Of a stretch of DNA of 34,703 bases, positions 19,783-26,592 are shown piece after piece. The position numbers and the translations under genes were made by a program. The notes beneath the pieces are model-generated. The model did no database searches. It had not been told where the DNA came from and saw nothing but the letters and a program-made list of their open reading frames with translations. Where the stretch lies: positions 1 through 34,703 of the forward strand of contig JAHQWC010000001.1 in NCBI GenBank assembly GCA_019634025.1, written 5' to 3'. Positions within the stretch are counted from its first letter, which is position 1, and each line of letters opens with the position of its first letter. The DNA is from Vampirovibrio sp. (lineage in GTDB: Bacteria > Cyanobacteriota > Vampirovibrionia > Vampirovibrionales > Vampirovibrionaceae).

Positions 19783-20161
19783 CTATCCGACCTATAGCTT
19801 TGGATCAACAGGTACAACTGCTTACAATAACACCCAACCATAGCAAAAAGTTGATAGTGGAAAAAGAAAATCTTTACATTACAGAGGAAGGAAGAAAGAG
19901 CGTTCGGTTAGCATATGCCTTCACAGGTAGCTTAAGAAAGCTTCGACATTCGATAAATTCTAAAAAATCTGAATGGCTCAAGAGAACTCGTTTATATCAA
20001 GCCATCGTATGAACCCTTCATCATATTTTTCAATCAAATTATGCAGATCAGTTCAAGATTTTAATAATTCAGTCGACCACATTGTGTAGGACGGAACGTA
20101 TTACCACCTCCCACTTCCTCCATGGCATTTGCACACTACTTTCAGACCGCACTTAATAAAG

Positions 20162-20187
20162 TGCAAAAGTATACATGTGTATTTGCA
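20162..20187. promoter_or_regulatory. Imperfect inverted repeat upstream of the acidic protein gene (possible operator)
   Basis: TGCAAA-N14-TTTGCA enclosing a near-palindromic TATACATGTGTA, 56 bp upstream of the ATG at 20244. Confidence 0.3.
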
Positions 20188-20243
20188 AATTCCCTTATTC
20201 CGTTGCCGCTTAATCTGTCGGTATTGATTGAAGGAGCCAAGCC

Positions 20244-22100
20244 GTGAAGCTCTGGTCATTATTCAAGCGCGATAAAAAAGAAGAAAAAGGAAAAACCCAA
20301 GCAAAGGGTTCCAAGCGGTCCAAAGGCGGCCCGTTGTTTGGTGGCTGGGTAGCAAACGACTCTGATCATGAAAGTATTTCGGACGGACAGACAGATGTTC
20401 TATTAGACACTGCTTCTTCCCCCTTCCCGGACAGTGCTCATTCTGACGCTTCACTGACACTGGATGATATGAACTTTGACCCAGAGGCACACAATAATGC
20501 CAATGGCCCCGACATGGACGAAGTCGAGCTGGAAGCTCTGCTCTCGATGGATAGCCTTCCTCCAATTGAGGGTAACCACTCTGAAGTTAGTGAGGTAGAG
20601 GACCACACACTTAATTCTACAGATTTAGAGCTAGATACAGGAATGAACTTATCTGGCGACGCTAATACAACAGTAAATATGACACCAGGTATATCTGAGG
20701 AAATACCCTCAATATCGGAGACCTCTTTTGACCTGACTGACTCTCTACAAGAGTTAACGATGTCCGATGATAGCGATATATCCTCGGATCCCTTAGCAGA
20801 CCTGGGATTTTCAAACCAATCAGACTCCCAGGAATTATTCGACCAAACGCTACTTGATCAAGATCCTTTTGATCTGGCTGCTACGGCCAGTGACTCGCCT
20901 TCAGAGAGCGCATCCGAAATGTCTCTAGAGCTTTCATCGCCCGAAGAAAGCTCAATGATAGAGTTATCGGATCCAACTGCTACTACACAAGAGTTTCCAG
21001 AAGTTTCCGGCATTGACGATCTATACCCACCGACAGCAACAACCGACGCACCTGAAGTCCAATCTTCACTTCTTCAAGAAACCGAAGATGCTGAACTTGC
21101 TCTAGAAGCACCGGATCTCGATGTATTCGAACCGCCTGAACCAGAAAATAGTTTGGGAATGAGCTTAGAAATGGATTTGGCTCAGACCCTAGAAGATAAC
21201 GAAGATAATAGTGAAGGCGATAACATTTTCAATCTGGTTGACGAAGAGCTTTTTGAAGAGTCACCTCAAGAAGAACTGGTAACAAAGCTTGTTGAAGAGG
21301 CAAATATATCACCAGCCATAACATCAGATACAAATGATAATTTTGCGGGATCAATAGAACATCCTGATGCTGATAATCCAGACACCACTTTGGATTTAAC
21401 TTCGACTACATCAGATGATGAGACTCCCCTTGAATTGTCAACGAATGCTGAGGCAGATACCGAAGTAGAATCCTTTAACCTGATTCTGGAAGATGGTGTA
21501 ACAGACACTGCAGAAGAAGATTTGTCAGATCTCTACCCTGATGAGACCTTACTGGCAGTTGATCCCGACGGTATGTCACAAACGGAAGAGGATCTAGAAA
21601 GCACCGATCAGATTGAACCTTTACCTTTAACCGAAACAGCCTCTATAGAAGAAGCCGAAGACTATGCTCCTCCCTCTCAAGAACTTAACGAGCTGATGGA
21701 AGCCGCTATGTCTTCTATGGACTCACAGGCTCCTATTGACCCGCAAGAAGTCGCTGTCGAATATGAGAATCTATCTGCCGCAATCGTACTGGAAGAAGAA
21801 AGCGACAATGAAGACAAACCGCTGTTCATCGAAGACTCAGAGCCAGATATAGAGACAGTGACAGAAATCAACCCAACAGTCGATGAACCGGTTTCTGCAC
21901 CTACATTGCAACCTGTTGCCCAAGATATACCTATCAGCAGTCCGGCACCAAAGGATATGGCTGCCAAGAAAACAGTTTCCCTGGCAGATTCCATGATCGA
22001 TTTTGAGATCAACATTATTTTGAATGACGCTCGGTTCGTGAATGACAGCATCAACCATCTGGTTAACCGGTATTTTGAGGTTAACCAAGGCGAAACTTAA
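20244..22100 (+). CDS. Hypothetical highly acidic, low-complexity (probably disordered) protein
   Basis: 618-aa ORF: basic N-terminus (MKLWSLFKRDKKEEKGK), long D/E/S/T-rich centre, short ordered-looking C-terminus (SLADSMIDFEINIILNDARFVNDSINHLVNRYFEVNQ). Confidence 0.75.
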   Translation: MKLWSLFKRDKKEEKGKTQAKGSKRSKGGPLFGGWVANDSDHESISDGQTDVLLDTASSPFPDSAHSDASLTLDDMNFDPEAHNNANGPDMDEVELEALLSMDSLPPIEGNHSEVSEVEDHTLNSTDLELDTGMNLSGDANTTVNMTPGISEEIPSISETSFDLTDSLQELTMSDDSDISSDPLADLGFSNQSDSQELFDQTLLDQDPFDLAATASDSPSESASEMSLELSSPEESSMIELSDPTATTQEFPEVSGIDDLYPPTATTDAPEVQSSLLQETEDAELALEAPDLDVFEPPEPENSLGMSLEMDLAQTLEDNEDNSEGDNIFNLVDEELFEESPQEELVTKLVEEANISPAITSDTNDNFAGSIEHPDADNPDTTLDLTSTTSDDETPLELSTNAEADTEVESFNLILEDGVTDTAEEDLSDLYPDETLLAVDPDGMSQTEEDLESTDQIEPLPLTETASIEEAEDYAPPSQELNELMEAAMSSMDSQAPIDPQEVAVEYENLSAAIVLEEESDNEDKPLFIEDSEPDIETVTEINPTVDEPVSAPTLQPVAQDIPISSPAPKDMAAKKTVSLADSMIDFEINIILNDARFVNDSINHLVNRYFEVNQGET

Positions 22101-22192
22101 CCGCTACGATATTGATTCAAGTATAATAACCAGAGCTTTTCTAATATGGTTCACCTGTTCAAAAAGCTGTAAAAGTCAGCCTGTCTATAAGG

Positions 22193-22591
22193 ATGTCCGA
22201 TCCCATGACCGTTGCCACCCCGGAACAACAAACCTTTCCTCCCATAGAAGTATGGGAAAACAAGCACTCGGATCGGGACTATACCATTACCATTTCGGTC
22301 CCGGAATACACTGCTGTTTGTCCGATGACGGGCTTGCCGGACTTTGGCACAATCCAAATTGAATATATTCCGGACAAAACCTGTATCGAGCTAAAAGCAT
22401 TTAAATATTACATCCTGGCTTACCGGAACTGCGGTATTTTTTATGAAAACGCCGTCAATAAAATCCTAACAGACATTGTAAAAGCCTGTAATCCAAGATA
22501 CTTAAACGTAACTGGTAATTTCACTTCCCGTGGCGGCATCAGCACCAGTGTAGAAGTCGAGCATTATCAGCCTCAGTATCAGGTAGGTTAG
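22193..22591 (+). CDS. queF: NADPH-dependent 7-cyano-7-deazaguanine (preQ0) reductase QueF
   Basis: EYTAVCPMTGLPDFGTIQIEYIPD and CIELKAFKYYILAYRNCGIFYENAVN motifs. Confidence 0.95.
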   Translation: MSDPMTVATPEQQTFPPIEVWENKHSDRDYTITISVPEYTAVCPMTGLPDFGTIQIEYIPDKTCIELKAFKYYILAYRNCGIFYENAVNKILTDIVKACNPRYLNVTGNFTSRGGISTSVEVEHYQPQYQVG

Positions 22592-22603
22592 CCGTTCCGT
22601 TTC

Positions 22604-23689
22604 TTATCCAATTCTTAGCGTCAAGCATTTGGCAGATCCGCCGGATTTGATGAACTCGCTCATATCTACGGGAACAACCTGAAACCCTTTGGCTTTCAGC
22701 TCCTCTTCAAGCCTTGGAGAGCCTTGATTCAAGACAATAGTATCGTTCACATTCACGGCATTACAGGCAAACCGGGCTGCCTCTTCAGCAGTGACAGGAA
22801 CACGCTTATTTTCCGGCACTTGAGATTCAATGACCGCTAAGCCATATGGATCAAAAGCACCGGGGTAATAGATTAAATGACCATCAGAGAGGGGGCAAAG
22901 GCATACATCGATGTGATAGAAACTGGGGTTCACTAACTCCATCGAGAGAACCGGCAATCCGGTTTGAGCCGTAATAAAGCCGTGAGAAGCAATATCGGTG
23001 CGGGTTTTATACCCGGCAAACACTAGACTTTCCCATATCAGGGCATCCCCTGCCCCTTCAAAAACAATGCCCTTAGGCAAGACAAACGTATCAAACCCAT
23101 GAGCCTCAAACCAGTGTTGATCATGAATCTCTTCTCCCTGACGTTCAGGGAATTTATACCGTGCAATAACGGCCTTATTGCCGTAGACAAAGGCCGCATT
23201 GGCCGTAAATACTAGATCTGGGAGACCTTCTACTGGGTCCATACAGTAGATTTGAGCGCCTGCCTGTTTCGTCAACGCTTGATATAAGGCATCCCACTGG
23301 AACTTTGCTTTCTCAACATCTACCCCACCGGCAGAAGGATTCTCGCTCATCCAGGGGTTAATGGCATAGGCTACCGTGAAGTGATCCGGAGGGCACATCA
23401 AAATTTTAGGCGTACCAGGAGATCCCAAGGGAGATTTACCCGGAGTCGTTAATGTTTTCGTCAATTCCCCAGATTGGTAGGGTTTGATCCGATCCAGGAT
23501 AACCTTCAAAACCTTTTCCGCAGGGGCTTCAATCGTCAGTTGAACCAGGGAAAAATCCTGCTTTTGTGACCCAATTTGAATGTCGTCCAGGGTATATTCC
23601 CCCCCGGCAGCATTGATGACATCCAATACCTTAGCCAAAGTCAAAGAATCAATGAGATGACCGGTCAGTTCAATTTGTTGGGAAATCAT
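22604..23689 (-). CDS. Arginine dihydrolase (ArgZ/AgrE-like amidinotransferase-fold) with N-terminal LOR/SDH-type conserved domain
   Basis: N-term IELTGHLIDSLTLAKVLDVINAAGGEY resembles the LOR/SDH conserved region; then ILMCPPDHFTVAYAINPWM, LPDLVFTANAAFVYG, FEGAGDAL, SFYHIDVCLCPL, FACNAVNV, GGSAKCLTLR. Confidence 0.85.
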   Translation of the reverse strand: MISQQIELTGHLIDSLTLAKVLDVINAAGGEYTLDDIQIGSQKQDFSLVQLTIEAPAEKVLKVILDRIKPYQSGELTKTLTTPGKSPLGSPGTPKILMCPPDHFTVAYAINPWMSENPSAGGVDVEKAKFQWDALYQALTKQAGAQIYCMDPVEGLPDLVFTANAAFVYGNKAVIARYKFPERQGEEIHDQHWFEAHGFDTFVLPKGIVFEGAGDALIWESLVFAGYKTRTDIASHGFITAQTGLPVLSMELVNPSFYHIDVCLCPLSDGHLIYYPGAFDPYGLAVIESQVPENKRVPVTAEEAARFACNAVNVNDTIVLNQGSPRLEEELKAKGFQVVPVDMSEFIKSGGSAKCLTLRIG

Positions 23690-24292
23690 AGGATCATTTG
23701 CCTCTAACTATTCCGTTATCTCTTTTATACCAAGATTTTTCCATCTTGGGAGAGATCCCCCAAAAAGAAAGCCCCGACCACAAAAAAATGGTAAGGGCAC
23801 GAACCAATGCGTTACAAAGCAATCCAATCTTACCTCAAAGTCGTTAGGCACTGCAATATAAAACCGAGGTTTTCCCAGAATATTCTTTGCCAAAAATGAA
23901 CGGTGGCAGAAGTTGATAAAGTTTGCTTCAGTTTGTCCTCTACATGGAGGATTCTTGGCACAACCCCTACACTGGATGGTGGATTTTATGTTAGAAGCTG
24001 GTTTCCACCAACATTAGGGAGGGAAATAGAGGGATAGGGTTACAGGTGATACAACCGGCACATGCCTATGGCAATAAGGTTATAGGTTTGCATGGCTAAA
24101 AAAAAGTCAGTACCCGGCTTTTCGTGGTTTTAACAGACGGAGTTCCTTCAACCAGTGGATGAATCCCGGTACCCACAAGCACTAGAGTATAGGTGGGTAT
24201 GTGTACTGGGATAGATAAAAACGACAGACGACAAAACGGACGAAAAACAAACGTCTCAAGGTAGTTCAGGTTAATCAGGGGTCTAACATACT

Positions 24293-24883
24293 GTGACATT
24301 GGTGCATTTACAGCAAACGCTCAATAGAATCCAGGACATTGAACAGCGCCTGGGTGGCCTCGGGCTGTCTACAGATAGACCTACCAGTACTCAAGGCGCT
24401 GAAGCGTTTGAAGCGGTGCTCAATCAGATTCAACCCCCTAAGGAAAGCGTGCCGGAGCTTAAAAACTATTTGGAAGATTTAGTGGAGCGTCAGGCAGGGA
24501 AAGAGGGACTGGATCCCAACCTGGTAAAAGCATTGGTGCAGACTGAATCTGCCTTTAACCCCAAGGCCGTTTCCAAGGCAGGGGCTATGGGCTTAATGCA
24601 ACTGATGCCAGGTACCGCAAATGAGTTAGGAGTCAAAGACGCCTTTAACCCCGTACAAAATATTAATGGCGGCACCAAATATCTGAAGACTCTGATGGGC
24701 AAATATGACTCGGTTCCCAAAGCATTGGCCGCCTATAACGCCGGCCCCGGTGCCGTAGATAAATACAGCGGCATCCCTCCTTACAAAGAAACCCAAAACT
24801 ATGTGCAACGAATTATGAGCCTTCAAAAGCAATATGCTGCCCAAGACGCTCAGATGTCCTCAATTTCAGCGGGAGGGCAGTAG
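24293..24883 (+). CDS. Lytic transglycosylase, SLT domain
   Basis: LVKALVQTESAFNPKAVSKAGAMGLMQLMPGTANELGV...AYNAGPGAVDKYSGIPPYKETQNYV; GTG start. Confidence 0.92.
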   Translation: MTLVHLQQTLNRIQDIEQRLGGLGLSTDRPTSTQGAEAFEAVLNQIQPPKESVPELKNYLEDLVERQAGKEGLDPNLVKALVQTESAFNPKAVSKAGAMGLMQLMPGTANELGVKDAFNPVQNINGGTKYLKTLMGKYDSVPKALAAYNAGPGAVDKYSGIPPYKETQNYVQRIMSLQKQYAAQDAQMSSISAGGQ

Positions 24884-24886
24884 CGT

Positions 24887-25663
24887 ATGTTACGCGGTTT
24901 ATATACAGCAGCTTCCGGCATGATGACCACCATGGTGCAAACCGACACCCTGGCCAACAATTTAGCAAACATCAATACCACAGGGTTTAAAAAGAACTCC
25001 GTGAATTTCCAAAGCTTTCCCGAAATGTTGCTGAACCGAGTCAGTCAGCAAGGAAGTACCGCCATCGGTTCGGTCATGACCGGCAGTAAGGTGCGCTCTA
25101 CCTACATCAACTTTGATCAGGGCAACATTGTTACGAGCAGTCGGGACTTTGACTTTGCCCTTGAGGGCGACGGCTTTTTTACCGTCAAAGATCCCGCCAC
25201 CAATGAAACTCGCTATACCCGCAACGGCAACTTTGTGATTAACCCTGACGGATTTTTAACCACCACCGGCGGCGAACTCGTCCAGGGGAATTTGGGAAAC
25301 ATTGTCATTCCTCAAGATACCCAGGTCACCTTAAGCCAAAGGGGTGAATTAACCGACAAAAACGGTCAAATTGATTCCTTAACCATCACTCGGTTCAAAA
25401 ATAACCATCTGTTAGAAAAGCATGGCTATTCTCAGTTTCGGGCAACCTCTGAAGCAGAGAAACTTCCTCCGCCTTCGGTGGGAGAACCTTTGGGATATAA
25501 AACCCACCAAAAGATGTTGGAAGCGTCCAACACCAACCCGATTTCTGAACTCATCAACACCATCACCGGTCAGCGGTTGTATGAGGCGTTGCAGAAAAAC
25601 ATCCAAATCCAAAACCAAACCCTGGGCCAGGCGGTTCAGGAAGTGGGTCGGTTTCAACGGTAA
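24887..25663 (+). CDS. flgF: Flagellar basal-body rod protein FlgF-like (flagellar hook-basal body protein)
   Basis: MLRGLYTAASGMMTTMVQTDTLANNLANINTTGFKKNSVNFQSF; C-terminal SNTNPISELINTITGQRLYEALQK; precedes flgG. Confidence 0.85.
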   Translation: MLRGLYTAASGMMTTMVQTDTLANNLANINTTGFKKNSVNFQSFPEMLLNRVSQQGSTAIGSVMTGSKVRSTYINFDQGNIVTSSRDFDFALEGDGFFTVKDPATNETRYTRNGNFVINPDGFLTTTGGELVQGNLGNIVIPQDTQVTLSQRGELTDKNGQIDSLTITRFKNNHLLEKHGYSQFRATSEAEKLPPPSVGEPLGYKTHQKMLEASNTNPISELINTITGQRLYEALQKNIQIQNQTLGQAVQEVGRFQR

Positions 25664-25673
25664 GTTCTAACGT

Positions 25674-25688
25674 TAAGGTTCAACCTTA
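25674..25688. repeat. Short palindrome TAAGGTT-C-AACCTTA in the flgF-flgG intergenic region
   Basis: Perfect 7-bp arms with 1-nt centre, just downstream of the flgF stop. Confidence 0.4.
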
Positions 25689-25800
25689 GCAAATCGCGTA
25701 AAAAGAGAAAGGCGAGAAAACCTCACACCAGTCAATAGATTCCACAACGATACAGAACGGTCATCAGGATTGAATAACCAGTCGGAGGTCAACACGGTAT

Positions 25801-26592
25801 ATGTTAAGAGCACTGTATACGGCGGCAACCGGGGCGTATTCGCAACAGTTTAACCTCGATATCATTGCCAACAACGTGTCTAACGTTAACACCACAGGCT
25901 TTAAAAAGGTTCGGGCAGAGTTCCAGGATCTACTGAGCCAAACCTATGAAACGGCAGGCTCCATTGGGGGCCAAGGCACTACGGATCCCGTCGGTATCCA
26001 GGTCGGTTTGGGAACCGAGGTCGCAGCCACCCAGCGGGTATTTTTGCCAGGCTCAGTCTTTCAAACCGGGAACCCATTAGATATTGCCGTTCAAGGCGAT
26101 GGCTTCTTCCAGGTTCAGTTAGACAGCGGCGATGTGGCCTATACTCGAGACGGTACCTGGAAACGGGACGCCAACGGCCAGGTCGTAACCTCGGATGGGT
26201 ATCCGCTGCAACCCGCCATTACCATTCCCAGTGATACGACAGAAATTGTCATCGGCATTAACGGCGTCGTCTCGGTCCGTCAAAGCGGGTCCACCGACCT
26301 GAACCAAATTGGCCAAATTCAGTTGGCCCGGTTTGCCAACGCTGCCGGAATGGAAAGCATTGGCCGCAACTTGTTCGTACAAACACCCGGATCCGGCGAC
26401 CCTATTTTGGGCACCGCTGGTCAAGGTGAGTTTGCCAAAACCACCATTAACCAGGGCTTTTTAGAAAACTCTAACGTCCAGATTGTAGAAGAACTCATTA
26501 ACCTCATTGCCGCCCAACGGGCGTTTGAAGCCAACTCCAACGTCATGCAGGCCGGTGATGAAATGCTACAGGTGGTAAATAACATTGTCTAG
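25801..26592 (+). CDS. flgG: Flagellar distal rod protein FlgG
   Basis: MLRALYTAATGAYSQQFNLDIIANNVSNVNTTGFKKVRAEFQDLLSQ; C-terminal ENSNVQIVEELINLIAAQRAFEANSNVMQAGDEML. Confidence 0.95.
   Translation: MLRALYTAATGAYSQQFNLDIIANNVSNVNTTGFKKVRAEFQDLLSQTYETAGSIGGQGTTDPVGIQVGLGTEVAATQRVFLPGSVFQTGNPLDIAVQGDGFFQVQLDSGDVAYTRDGTWKRDANGQVVTSDGYPLQPAITIPSDTTEIVIGINGVVSVRQSGSTDLNQIGQIQLARFANAAGMESIGRNLFVQTPGSGDPILGTAGQGEFAKTTINQGFLENSNVQIVEELINLIAAQRAFEANSNVMQAGDEMLQVVNNIV

What the first reader, a model, noticed from the sequence alone, without database searches (positions are those of the whole stretch)
22604..23689. Arginine dihydrolase with rearranged domain order: LOR/SDH-type domain in front of the amidinotransferase domain, no C-terminal cyclodeaminase
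The first ~70 residues (IELTGHLIDSLTLAKVLDVINAAGGEYTLDDIQIGSQKQDFSLVQLTIEAPAEKVLKVILDRI) look like the LOR/SDH conserved region (Saccharop_dh_N-type). The rest looks like the ArgZ/AgrE arginine dihydrolase domain: INPWM, FTANAA, FEGAGDAL, YHIDVCLCPL and the C-terminal GGSAKCLT with the expected catalytic Cys. As I recall cyanobacterial AgrE/ArgZ, the amidinotransferase domain comes first, then the LOR/SDH-type domain, then an ornithine cyclodeaminase/proline-forming part. Here the order appears swapped and the protein ends right after the catalytic Cys. That suggests a permuted, stand-alone arginine-to-ornithine/ammonia enzyme, with the LOR/SDH-type domain possibly regulatory or oligomerising.
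Basis: partly seen in the sequence, partly recalled or inferred. Interest (0 to 1): 0.72.

Follow-up and report, generated by a model that had tools for sequence, protein, structure and literature searches.

The report
Arginine dihydrolase fused to LOR stump
This gene encodes an arginine-breaking enzyme with a small domain left over from a lost neighbouring enzyme fused to its front, and relatives that keep the same small domain as a separate gene directly upstream suggest that the domain helps the arginine enzyme itself.

Summary
Window 22604-23689 (-) is one 361-aa ORF: LOR/SDH domain (PF04455, residues 4-71, E 4e-19), a 21-residue linker, then a complete arginine-dihydrolase domain (residues 94-361; best PDB matches ArgZ/AgrE, 46/44% identity, TM 0.95 to ArgZ-N) with its catalytic residues. 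There is no cyclodeaminase domain, here or elsewhere in the (79% complete) genome. Three related genera carry the same fusion, so it is not an assembly error.

It is not a permuted AgrE/ArgZ. In Armatimonadota a full ornithine cyclodeaminase (OCD) gene, whose N-terminus is the LOR domain, directly precedes or overlaps the dihydrolase gene (18 of 18 loci). In the window's own class the OCD gene is cut to LOR plus half a domain, to a 75-aa LOR minigene, or to tandem LOR-LOR, always directly upstream of the dihydrolase (21 of 21 contiguous split loci). The window's fusion lies in the same chromosomal locus as some split and LOR-less versions.

Best reading: a LOR stump with an ACT-like fold, kept under purifying selection as a minigene after OCD catalysis was lost, serves the dihydrolase as a regulatory or assembly module. 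Activity and LOR function are untested. New variant of a known kind.

The parts
22604..23689 (-). Whole ORF, 361 aa: LOR/SDH - arginine dihydrolase fusion
   Evidence: same fusion in G001, G002, G003
23474..23689 (-). LOR/SDH (Saccharop_dh_N, PF04455) domain, residues 1-72; predicted beta-alpha-beta-beta-alpha, lacking the last ~30 profile positions
   Evidence: fold relative 3mgj (MJ1480 LOR domain) from the tandem-LOR model
23411..23473 (-). Linker, residues 73-93 (SGELTKTLTTPGKSPLGSPGT); resembles the N-terminal extension of the split dihydrolases; lowest model confidence (residues 77-79)
22607..23410 (-). Arginine dihydrolase domain, residues 94-361; conserved N111, N164, E211, H259, C355
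24293..24883 (+). Divergent neighbour: FlgJ/lytic-transglycosylase-like gene at the head of a flagellar rod/L-ring cluster (to about 29241); marks the shared locus in relatives, not part of the enzyme
   Evidence: same cluster beside fused L046, split L048/L050/L142 and LOR-less L049; gene names from reading the sequence

Best explanation
The protein is an arginine dihydrolase (L-arginine to L-ornithine + CO2 + 2 NH3, Cys355 nucleophile) carrying the N-terminal LOR/SDH domain of an ornithine cyclodeaminase (OCD) whose catalytic part has been lost. Shown here: the architecture; the OCD-gene/dihydrolase-gene order in Armatimonadota; truncated-OCD and LOR-only genes directly upstream of the dihydrolase in the same class; purifying selection on the LOR minigenes; a shared locus for fused and split forms; conserved catalytic residues. 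Inferred: in the window's family a deletion removed the tail of the upstream stump gene and the dihydrolase start codon, making one protein. Inferred, less certain: the LOR domain, a small ACT-like ferredoxin-fold module, binds the dihydrolase as a regulatory or oligomerising subunit, supplied in trans by most relatives and in cis here. Ornithine then cannot become proline through this OCD family; in the window's genome it can re-enter arginine synthesis through ornithine carbamoyltransferase.
For: Domains and catalytic residues. Series of forms: full OCD then dihydrolase in 18 of 18 Armatimonadota loci that have both; LOR plus partial PF21571 (TIGR00300 positions 3-160 of 407) then dihydrolase in g5 and f2; 75-aa LOR then dihydrolase in f3, f6, f48; tandem LOR-LOR then dihydrolase in two f48 genera. 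All 21 contiguous split loci have the LOR gene directly upstream on the same strand, the stop and likely start within about 30 nt. Selection: dN/dS about 0.02-0.09 for LOR minigenes. Same locus beside one flagellar cluster: window and L046 fused, L048/L050/L142 split, L049 LOR-less. LOR and dihydrolase trees both group half-OCD and fused forms. The linker resembles the N-terminal extension of split dihydrolases. PF21570 is absent from the whole order; OTC present. ACT-like fold: two beta-alpha-beta-beta-alpha-beta units, Foldseek hits to MJ1480 LOR, ArgZ/AgrE, then AHAS and aspartate-kinase regulatory subunits.
Against: Activity, substrate and product were not measured; the NCBIfam dihydrolase score is 309, below the curated 450, and the asparagines are also present in distant actinobacterial relatives, so they do not discriminate. 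The dihydrolase occurs without LOR in G005, G011, G013 and G565, so LOR is not always needed. Two 99% complete genomes keep a LOR minigene with no dihydrolase. In the fused/half group LOR evolves faster (40% identity between window and L046) than the dihydrolase (72%). ACT similarity is weak (TM 0.3-0.5).
Confidence: 0.62

Rival explanations
1. The LOR part is a passive leftover: the OCD gene eroded, a stump survived because it carries the ribosome entry and translational coupling for the dihydrolase, and fusion merely captured it. The dihydrolase works without it.
For: Short stumps overlap or abut the dihydrolase start; the dihydrolase is sometimes alone; LOR diverges faster than the dihydrolase in the fused/half group.
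Against: dN/dS 0.02-0.09 for LOR minigenes, similar to the dihydrolase; conserved motif GHIIDSLxLSKLLD; duplication of LOR in two genomes; a LOR gene persisting without the dihydrolase; confident fold in the fused protein.
Confidence: 0.23
2. Permuted AgrE/ArgZ: a cyanobacterial-type dihydrolase-LOR-OCD protein underwent domain shuffling that moved LOR to the front and dropped OCD.
For: Both domains match AgrE in swapped order; the window's class is in the same phylum as the ArgZ-bearing cyanobacteria.
Against: Separate LOR-first gene pairs are widespread in the class and in Armatimonadota; the ~700-aa order was found only outside the window's class in the phylum sample; in the LOR tree cyanobacterial LOR lies apart from the class's LOR (96/92).
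Confidence: 0.07
3. The catalytic domain is a dimethylargininase (DDAH) or arginine deiminase rather than an arginine dihydrolase.
For: Scores 248 bits on a dimethylargininase model (cut-off 300); Asn111/Asn164 also occur in distant actinobacterial relatives.
Against: Dihydrolase models score higher (309 and 352); closest solved structures are ArgZ/AgrE; keeps 89 of 131 columns invariant in cyanobacterial ArgZ against 73-74 for the actinobacterial relatives; genomic pairing with OCD, an ornithine-using enzyme, in Armatimonadota.
Confidence: 0.08

Closest known systems
AgrE / ArgZ (bifunctional arginine dihydrolase / ornithine cyclodeaminase of cyanobacteria; PDB 6lrf-h, 6juy-6jv1)
   Same: Homologous dihydrolase domain (44-46% identity, all catalytic residues) and homologous LOR domain
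   Different: Order LOR-dihydrolase instead of dihydrolase-LOR-OCD; OCD catalytic part (PF21571, PF21570) absent; 361 aa instead of about 700
TIGR00300 ornithine cyclodeaminase (LOR + PF21571 + PF21570), as in MJ1480 and in the Armatimonadota gene next to the dihydrolase
   Same: LOR domain is its N-terminal domain; same order relative to the dihydrolase gene in Armatimonadota
   Different: Only profile positions 1-68 of 407 are present; no nucleotide-binding or catalytic domain
Split LOR minigene + dihydrolase pairs in other families of the same class (for example L054, L057, L062)
   Same: Same two domains, same order, adjacent and closely coupled
   Different: Two genes instead of one protein
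ACT-domain regulatory subunits (IlvH of acetohydroxyacid synthase, aspartate kinase beta)
   Same: Beta-alpha-beta-beta-alpha-beta topology, small partner of an amino-acid enzyme, tandem copies in some genomes
   Different: No sequence match; TM only 0.3-0.5; no ligand known

Membership tests
Arginine dihydrolase (NF052232) | Full-length domain match over the curated score (450 bits) | tested here: not met
   309 bits, full length 4-266/266, E 2e-92; none of the 384 genomes sampled from the class reaches 450, so the cut-off seems set for cyanobacterial members
Arginine dihydrolase (NF052232) | Catalytic Cys and His, active-site Glu, and the two Asn (ArgZ N22/N71) | tested here: met
   C355, H259, E211, N111, N164 conserved in window, relatives and all 22 cyanobacterial ArgZ; roles of the residues from PDB titles and recall
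Arginine dihydrolase (NF052232) | Arginine to ornithine + CO2 + 2 NH3 | not testable with these tools
   needs an enzyme assay
AgrE/ArgZ bifunctional enzyme (NF052231) | Dihydrolase domain followed by LOR and OCD catalytic domains in one chain | tested here: not met
   order reversed, OCD domains absent, 352 bits against cut-off 1025
LOR/SDH (PF04455) | Profile match over gathering score | tested here: met
   69.3 bits against 23.5, though only positions 2-69 of 100
TIGR00300 ornithine cyclodeaminase | Full-length match including the Rossmann domain PF21570 | tested here: not met
   only positions 1-68 of 407, 44 bits against 411; PF21570 not found in this genome or order
ACT domain | ACT sequence profile or close structural match | tested here: inconclusive
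   no Pfam ACT hit; topology fits, weak Foldseek similarity to ACT regulatory subunits

The most novel reading that the evidence does not exclude
The LOR/SDH domain, without an assigned function in OCD, AgrE/ArgZ and lysine-degrading enzymes, is an ACT-like sensing or assembly subunit for arginine dihydrolase. Non-photosynthetic cyanobacterial relatives run a two-gene dihydrolase with a 75-aa regulatory subunit derived from a dismantled cyclodeaminase, and the window's family has fused the two.
Probability: 0.35. Interest if true: 0.65.

Novelty: new variant of a known kind. Interest (0 to 1): 0.5.

Why it matters
As far as I know, PF04455 has been a conserved region without an assigned function. 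Here nature has run a domain-dissection experiment: the catalytic part of OCD is gone in several families, yet the 70-residue LOR domain remains beside or inside the dihydrolase, sometimes duplicated. That makes it directly testable whether LOR serves arginine dihydrolase rather than the cyclodeaminase, with small natural constructs. It also suggests an origin for AgrE/ArgZ: two partner genes were joined in opposite orders in different lineages, and arginine breakdown in the window's relatives should end at ornithine rather than proline by this route.

Tried and rejected
Internal duplication or assembly artefact: rejected, same fusion in three further genera. Hidden OCD elsewhere in the genome: none by PF04455 or PF21570, within 79% completeness. 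Cyanophycin link: the cyanophycinase model hits nothing in the 18 genomes of the order. Riboswitch or other known RNA nearby: none at gathering threshold in 20000-26000. Single versus repeated fusion: not decided; one origin is not rejected (p-AU 0.171), while the separate trees split the fused rows. Literature: no paper found on this architecture in the held library; the AgrE and ArgZ structure papers are not held. A scan of genome contigs with the single protein found only four distant loci, one of which (L032) revealed the OCD-dihydrolase pair.

Full report
WHAT IS THERE. The ORF at 22604-23689 on the minus strand is intact, begins with ATG behind a GAGG stretch and encodes 361 residues. 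Residues 4-71 match PF04455 (LOR/SDH, Saccharop_dh_N) at E 4e-19. Residues 94-361 are a complete arginine-dihydrolase-type domain: best NCBIfam matches are the ArgZ and arginine-dihydrolase models (E 7e-105 and 2e-92, scores 352 and 309, below the curated cut-offs of 1025 and 450), best PDB sequence matches AgrE and ArgZ. TIGR00300, the nickel-pincer ornithine cyclodeaminase (OCD), matches only at its positions 1-68, its LOR domain. The chain ends six residues after Cys355.

STRUCTURE. An AlphaFold2 model from a 60-row alignment has mean pLDDT 92 (pTM 0.78), with a beta-alpha-beta-beta-alpha LOR unit at residues 2-71, a poorly ordered linker (lowest at 77-79) and the dihydrolase fold. Foldseek places the dihydrolase part on the ArgZ N-terminal domain (TM 0.95 to the target, rmsd 1.2-1.3 A). 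N111, N164, E211, H259 and C355 are conserved in every aligned row, including all 22 cyanobacterial ArgZ rows; 6juz and 6jv1 are titled as ArgZ N71S and C264S complexes, which correspond to N164 and C355. These residues also occur in distant actinobacterial relatives, so they do not prove dihydrolase chemistry. The window keeps 89 of 131 columns invariant in cyanobacterial ArgZ; the actinobacterial rows keep 73-74.

HOW RARE IS THE FUSION. Among 384 genomes sampled from the class, 36 have PF04455. My tally: 4 fused (window genome G000 and G001-G003, four genera of one family), 8 with LOR plus part of PF21571 as a separate gene of about 159-182 aa, 13 with a LOR minigene of about 75 aa and a dihydrolase (in one, G260, the two lie at ends of different contigs), 2 with tandem LOR-LOR genes, 2 with a LOR minigene but no dihydrolase, and 7 with full-length OCD, all in one other family (f4). 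The OCD Rossmann domain PF21570 is found only in those 7. In the phylum sample, the lineages outside the class have the ~700-aa dihydrolase-LOR-OCD protein.

WHERE THE ORDER COMES FROM. In Armatimonadota, complete OCD genes of about 405-450 aa, LOR at the N-terminus, sit directly before the dihydrolase gene on the same strand, mostly overlapping by 1-17 nt (18 of 18 fetched loci with both). In the window's class the same order persists with OCD reduced: half-OCD stumps cover TIGR00300 positions 3-160 of 407, that is PF04455 plus positions 1-57 of 84 of PF21571; minigenes cover LOR only. In all 21 contiguous split loci the LOR gene is immediately upstream of the dihydrolase, with stop and likely start within about 30 nt. 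So the LOR-first order is the order of a gene pair, not a permutation of AgrE/ArgZ. The window, L046 (fused), L048, L050, L142 (split half-OCD) and L049 (dihydrolase alone) all lie beside the same divergent FlgJ-like/flagellar cluster, so fused, split and LOR-less forms occupy one orthologous locus. The fusion linkers (21-36 aa) resemble the N-terminal extension of the split dihydrolases, with a P-L-G or P-F-S motif shortly before the core; I infer that a deletion removed the end of the stump gene and the dihydrolase start.

PHYLOGENY. In the dihydrolase tree, fused and half-OCD rows form one group (SH-aLRT 99, with LOR-less G005), and minigene rows form another (99). In the LOR tree fused and half-OCD rows group at 99/88 and lie apart from cyanobacterial LOR (96/92), but only 74 columns are available. 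On joined data one origin of the fusion is neither shown nor rejected (p-AU 0.171). The direction of change (loss of OCD rather than gain) is inferred from the profile content of the half-OCD genes and from the full pairs in Armatimonadota; the root is not tested.

IS THE LOR DOMAIN DOING SOMETHING. LOR minigenes show dN/dS of about 0.02-0.09 in close pairs, like the neighbouring dihydrolase gene; their GHIIDSLxLSKLLD motif is conserved. The tandem LOR protein models as two beta-alpha-beta-beta-alpha-beta units (pLDDT 85, pTM 0.62); its PDB matches are MJ1480 LOR, ArgZ/AgrE, and then, weakly (TM 0.3-0.5), acetohydroxyacid synthase and aspartate kinase regulatory subunits, a putative glycine-cleavage repressor and designed or unrelated ferredoxin-like folds. 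An ACT-like regulatory or assembly subunit is therefore the best guess. Against it: some dihydrolases lack LOR, two genomes keep LOR without dihydrolase (dN/dS about 0.14, one pair), and LOR diverges faster than the dihydrolase in the fused/half group (40% against 72% identity for window and L046).

METABOLIC SETTING. The window genome has ornithine carbamoyltransferase over its cut-off (410 bits), but fused genomes G001 and G003 show only weak transcarbamoylase hits. Cyanophycinase was not found in the order. AgrE is reported to convert arginine to proline through ornithine with release of CO2 and three ammonium (PMC8262935); without OCD the window enzyme should stop at ornithine, which can be recycled where OTC exists. 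The fate of ornithine in G001/G003 was not examined.

TAXONOMY.

VERDICT. As an enzyme it is probably an ordinary arginine dihydrolase; the interest lies in the LOR stump that outlived its cyclodeaminase and makes the function of PF04455 testable.

Noticed in passing
L125:4545-5015 and L126:1083-1553: Tandem LOR-LOR proteins (156 aa) directly upstream of a dihydrolase gene in two genera of family f48.
   Followed up: partly
L064:4720-4947 (+), L063:4460-4684 (-): LOR minigene behind a GspF-like gene in two 99% complete genomes (f11) with no dihydrolase match; LOR may have another role or be a recent orphan.
   Followed up: partly
L185-L202: Armatimonadota: full ornithine cyclodeaminase gene directly before or overlapping an arginine dihydrolase gene, an apparent two-gene counterpart of AgrE/ArgZ.
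   Followed up: yes
window 22193-22591 (+): Conserved 132-aa protein of unknown function convergent with the fusion gene; homologues near the dihydrolase in L048, L049 and L050.
   Followed up: no
window 20244-22100 (+): 618-aa, very acidic, Ser/Asp/Glu-rich, probably disordered protein next to the locus.
   Followed up: no
G314:C1:2979539-2980331 and G194:C1:12861-13351: Broken or frameshifted dihydrolase matches in one genus of the phylum sample (g129), suggesting decay of ArgZ there.
   Followed up: no
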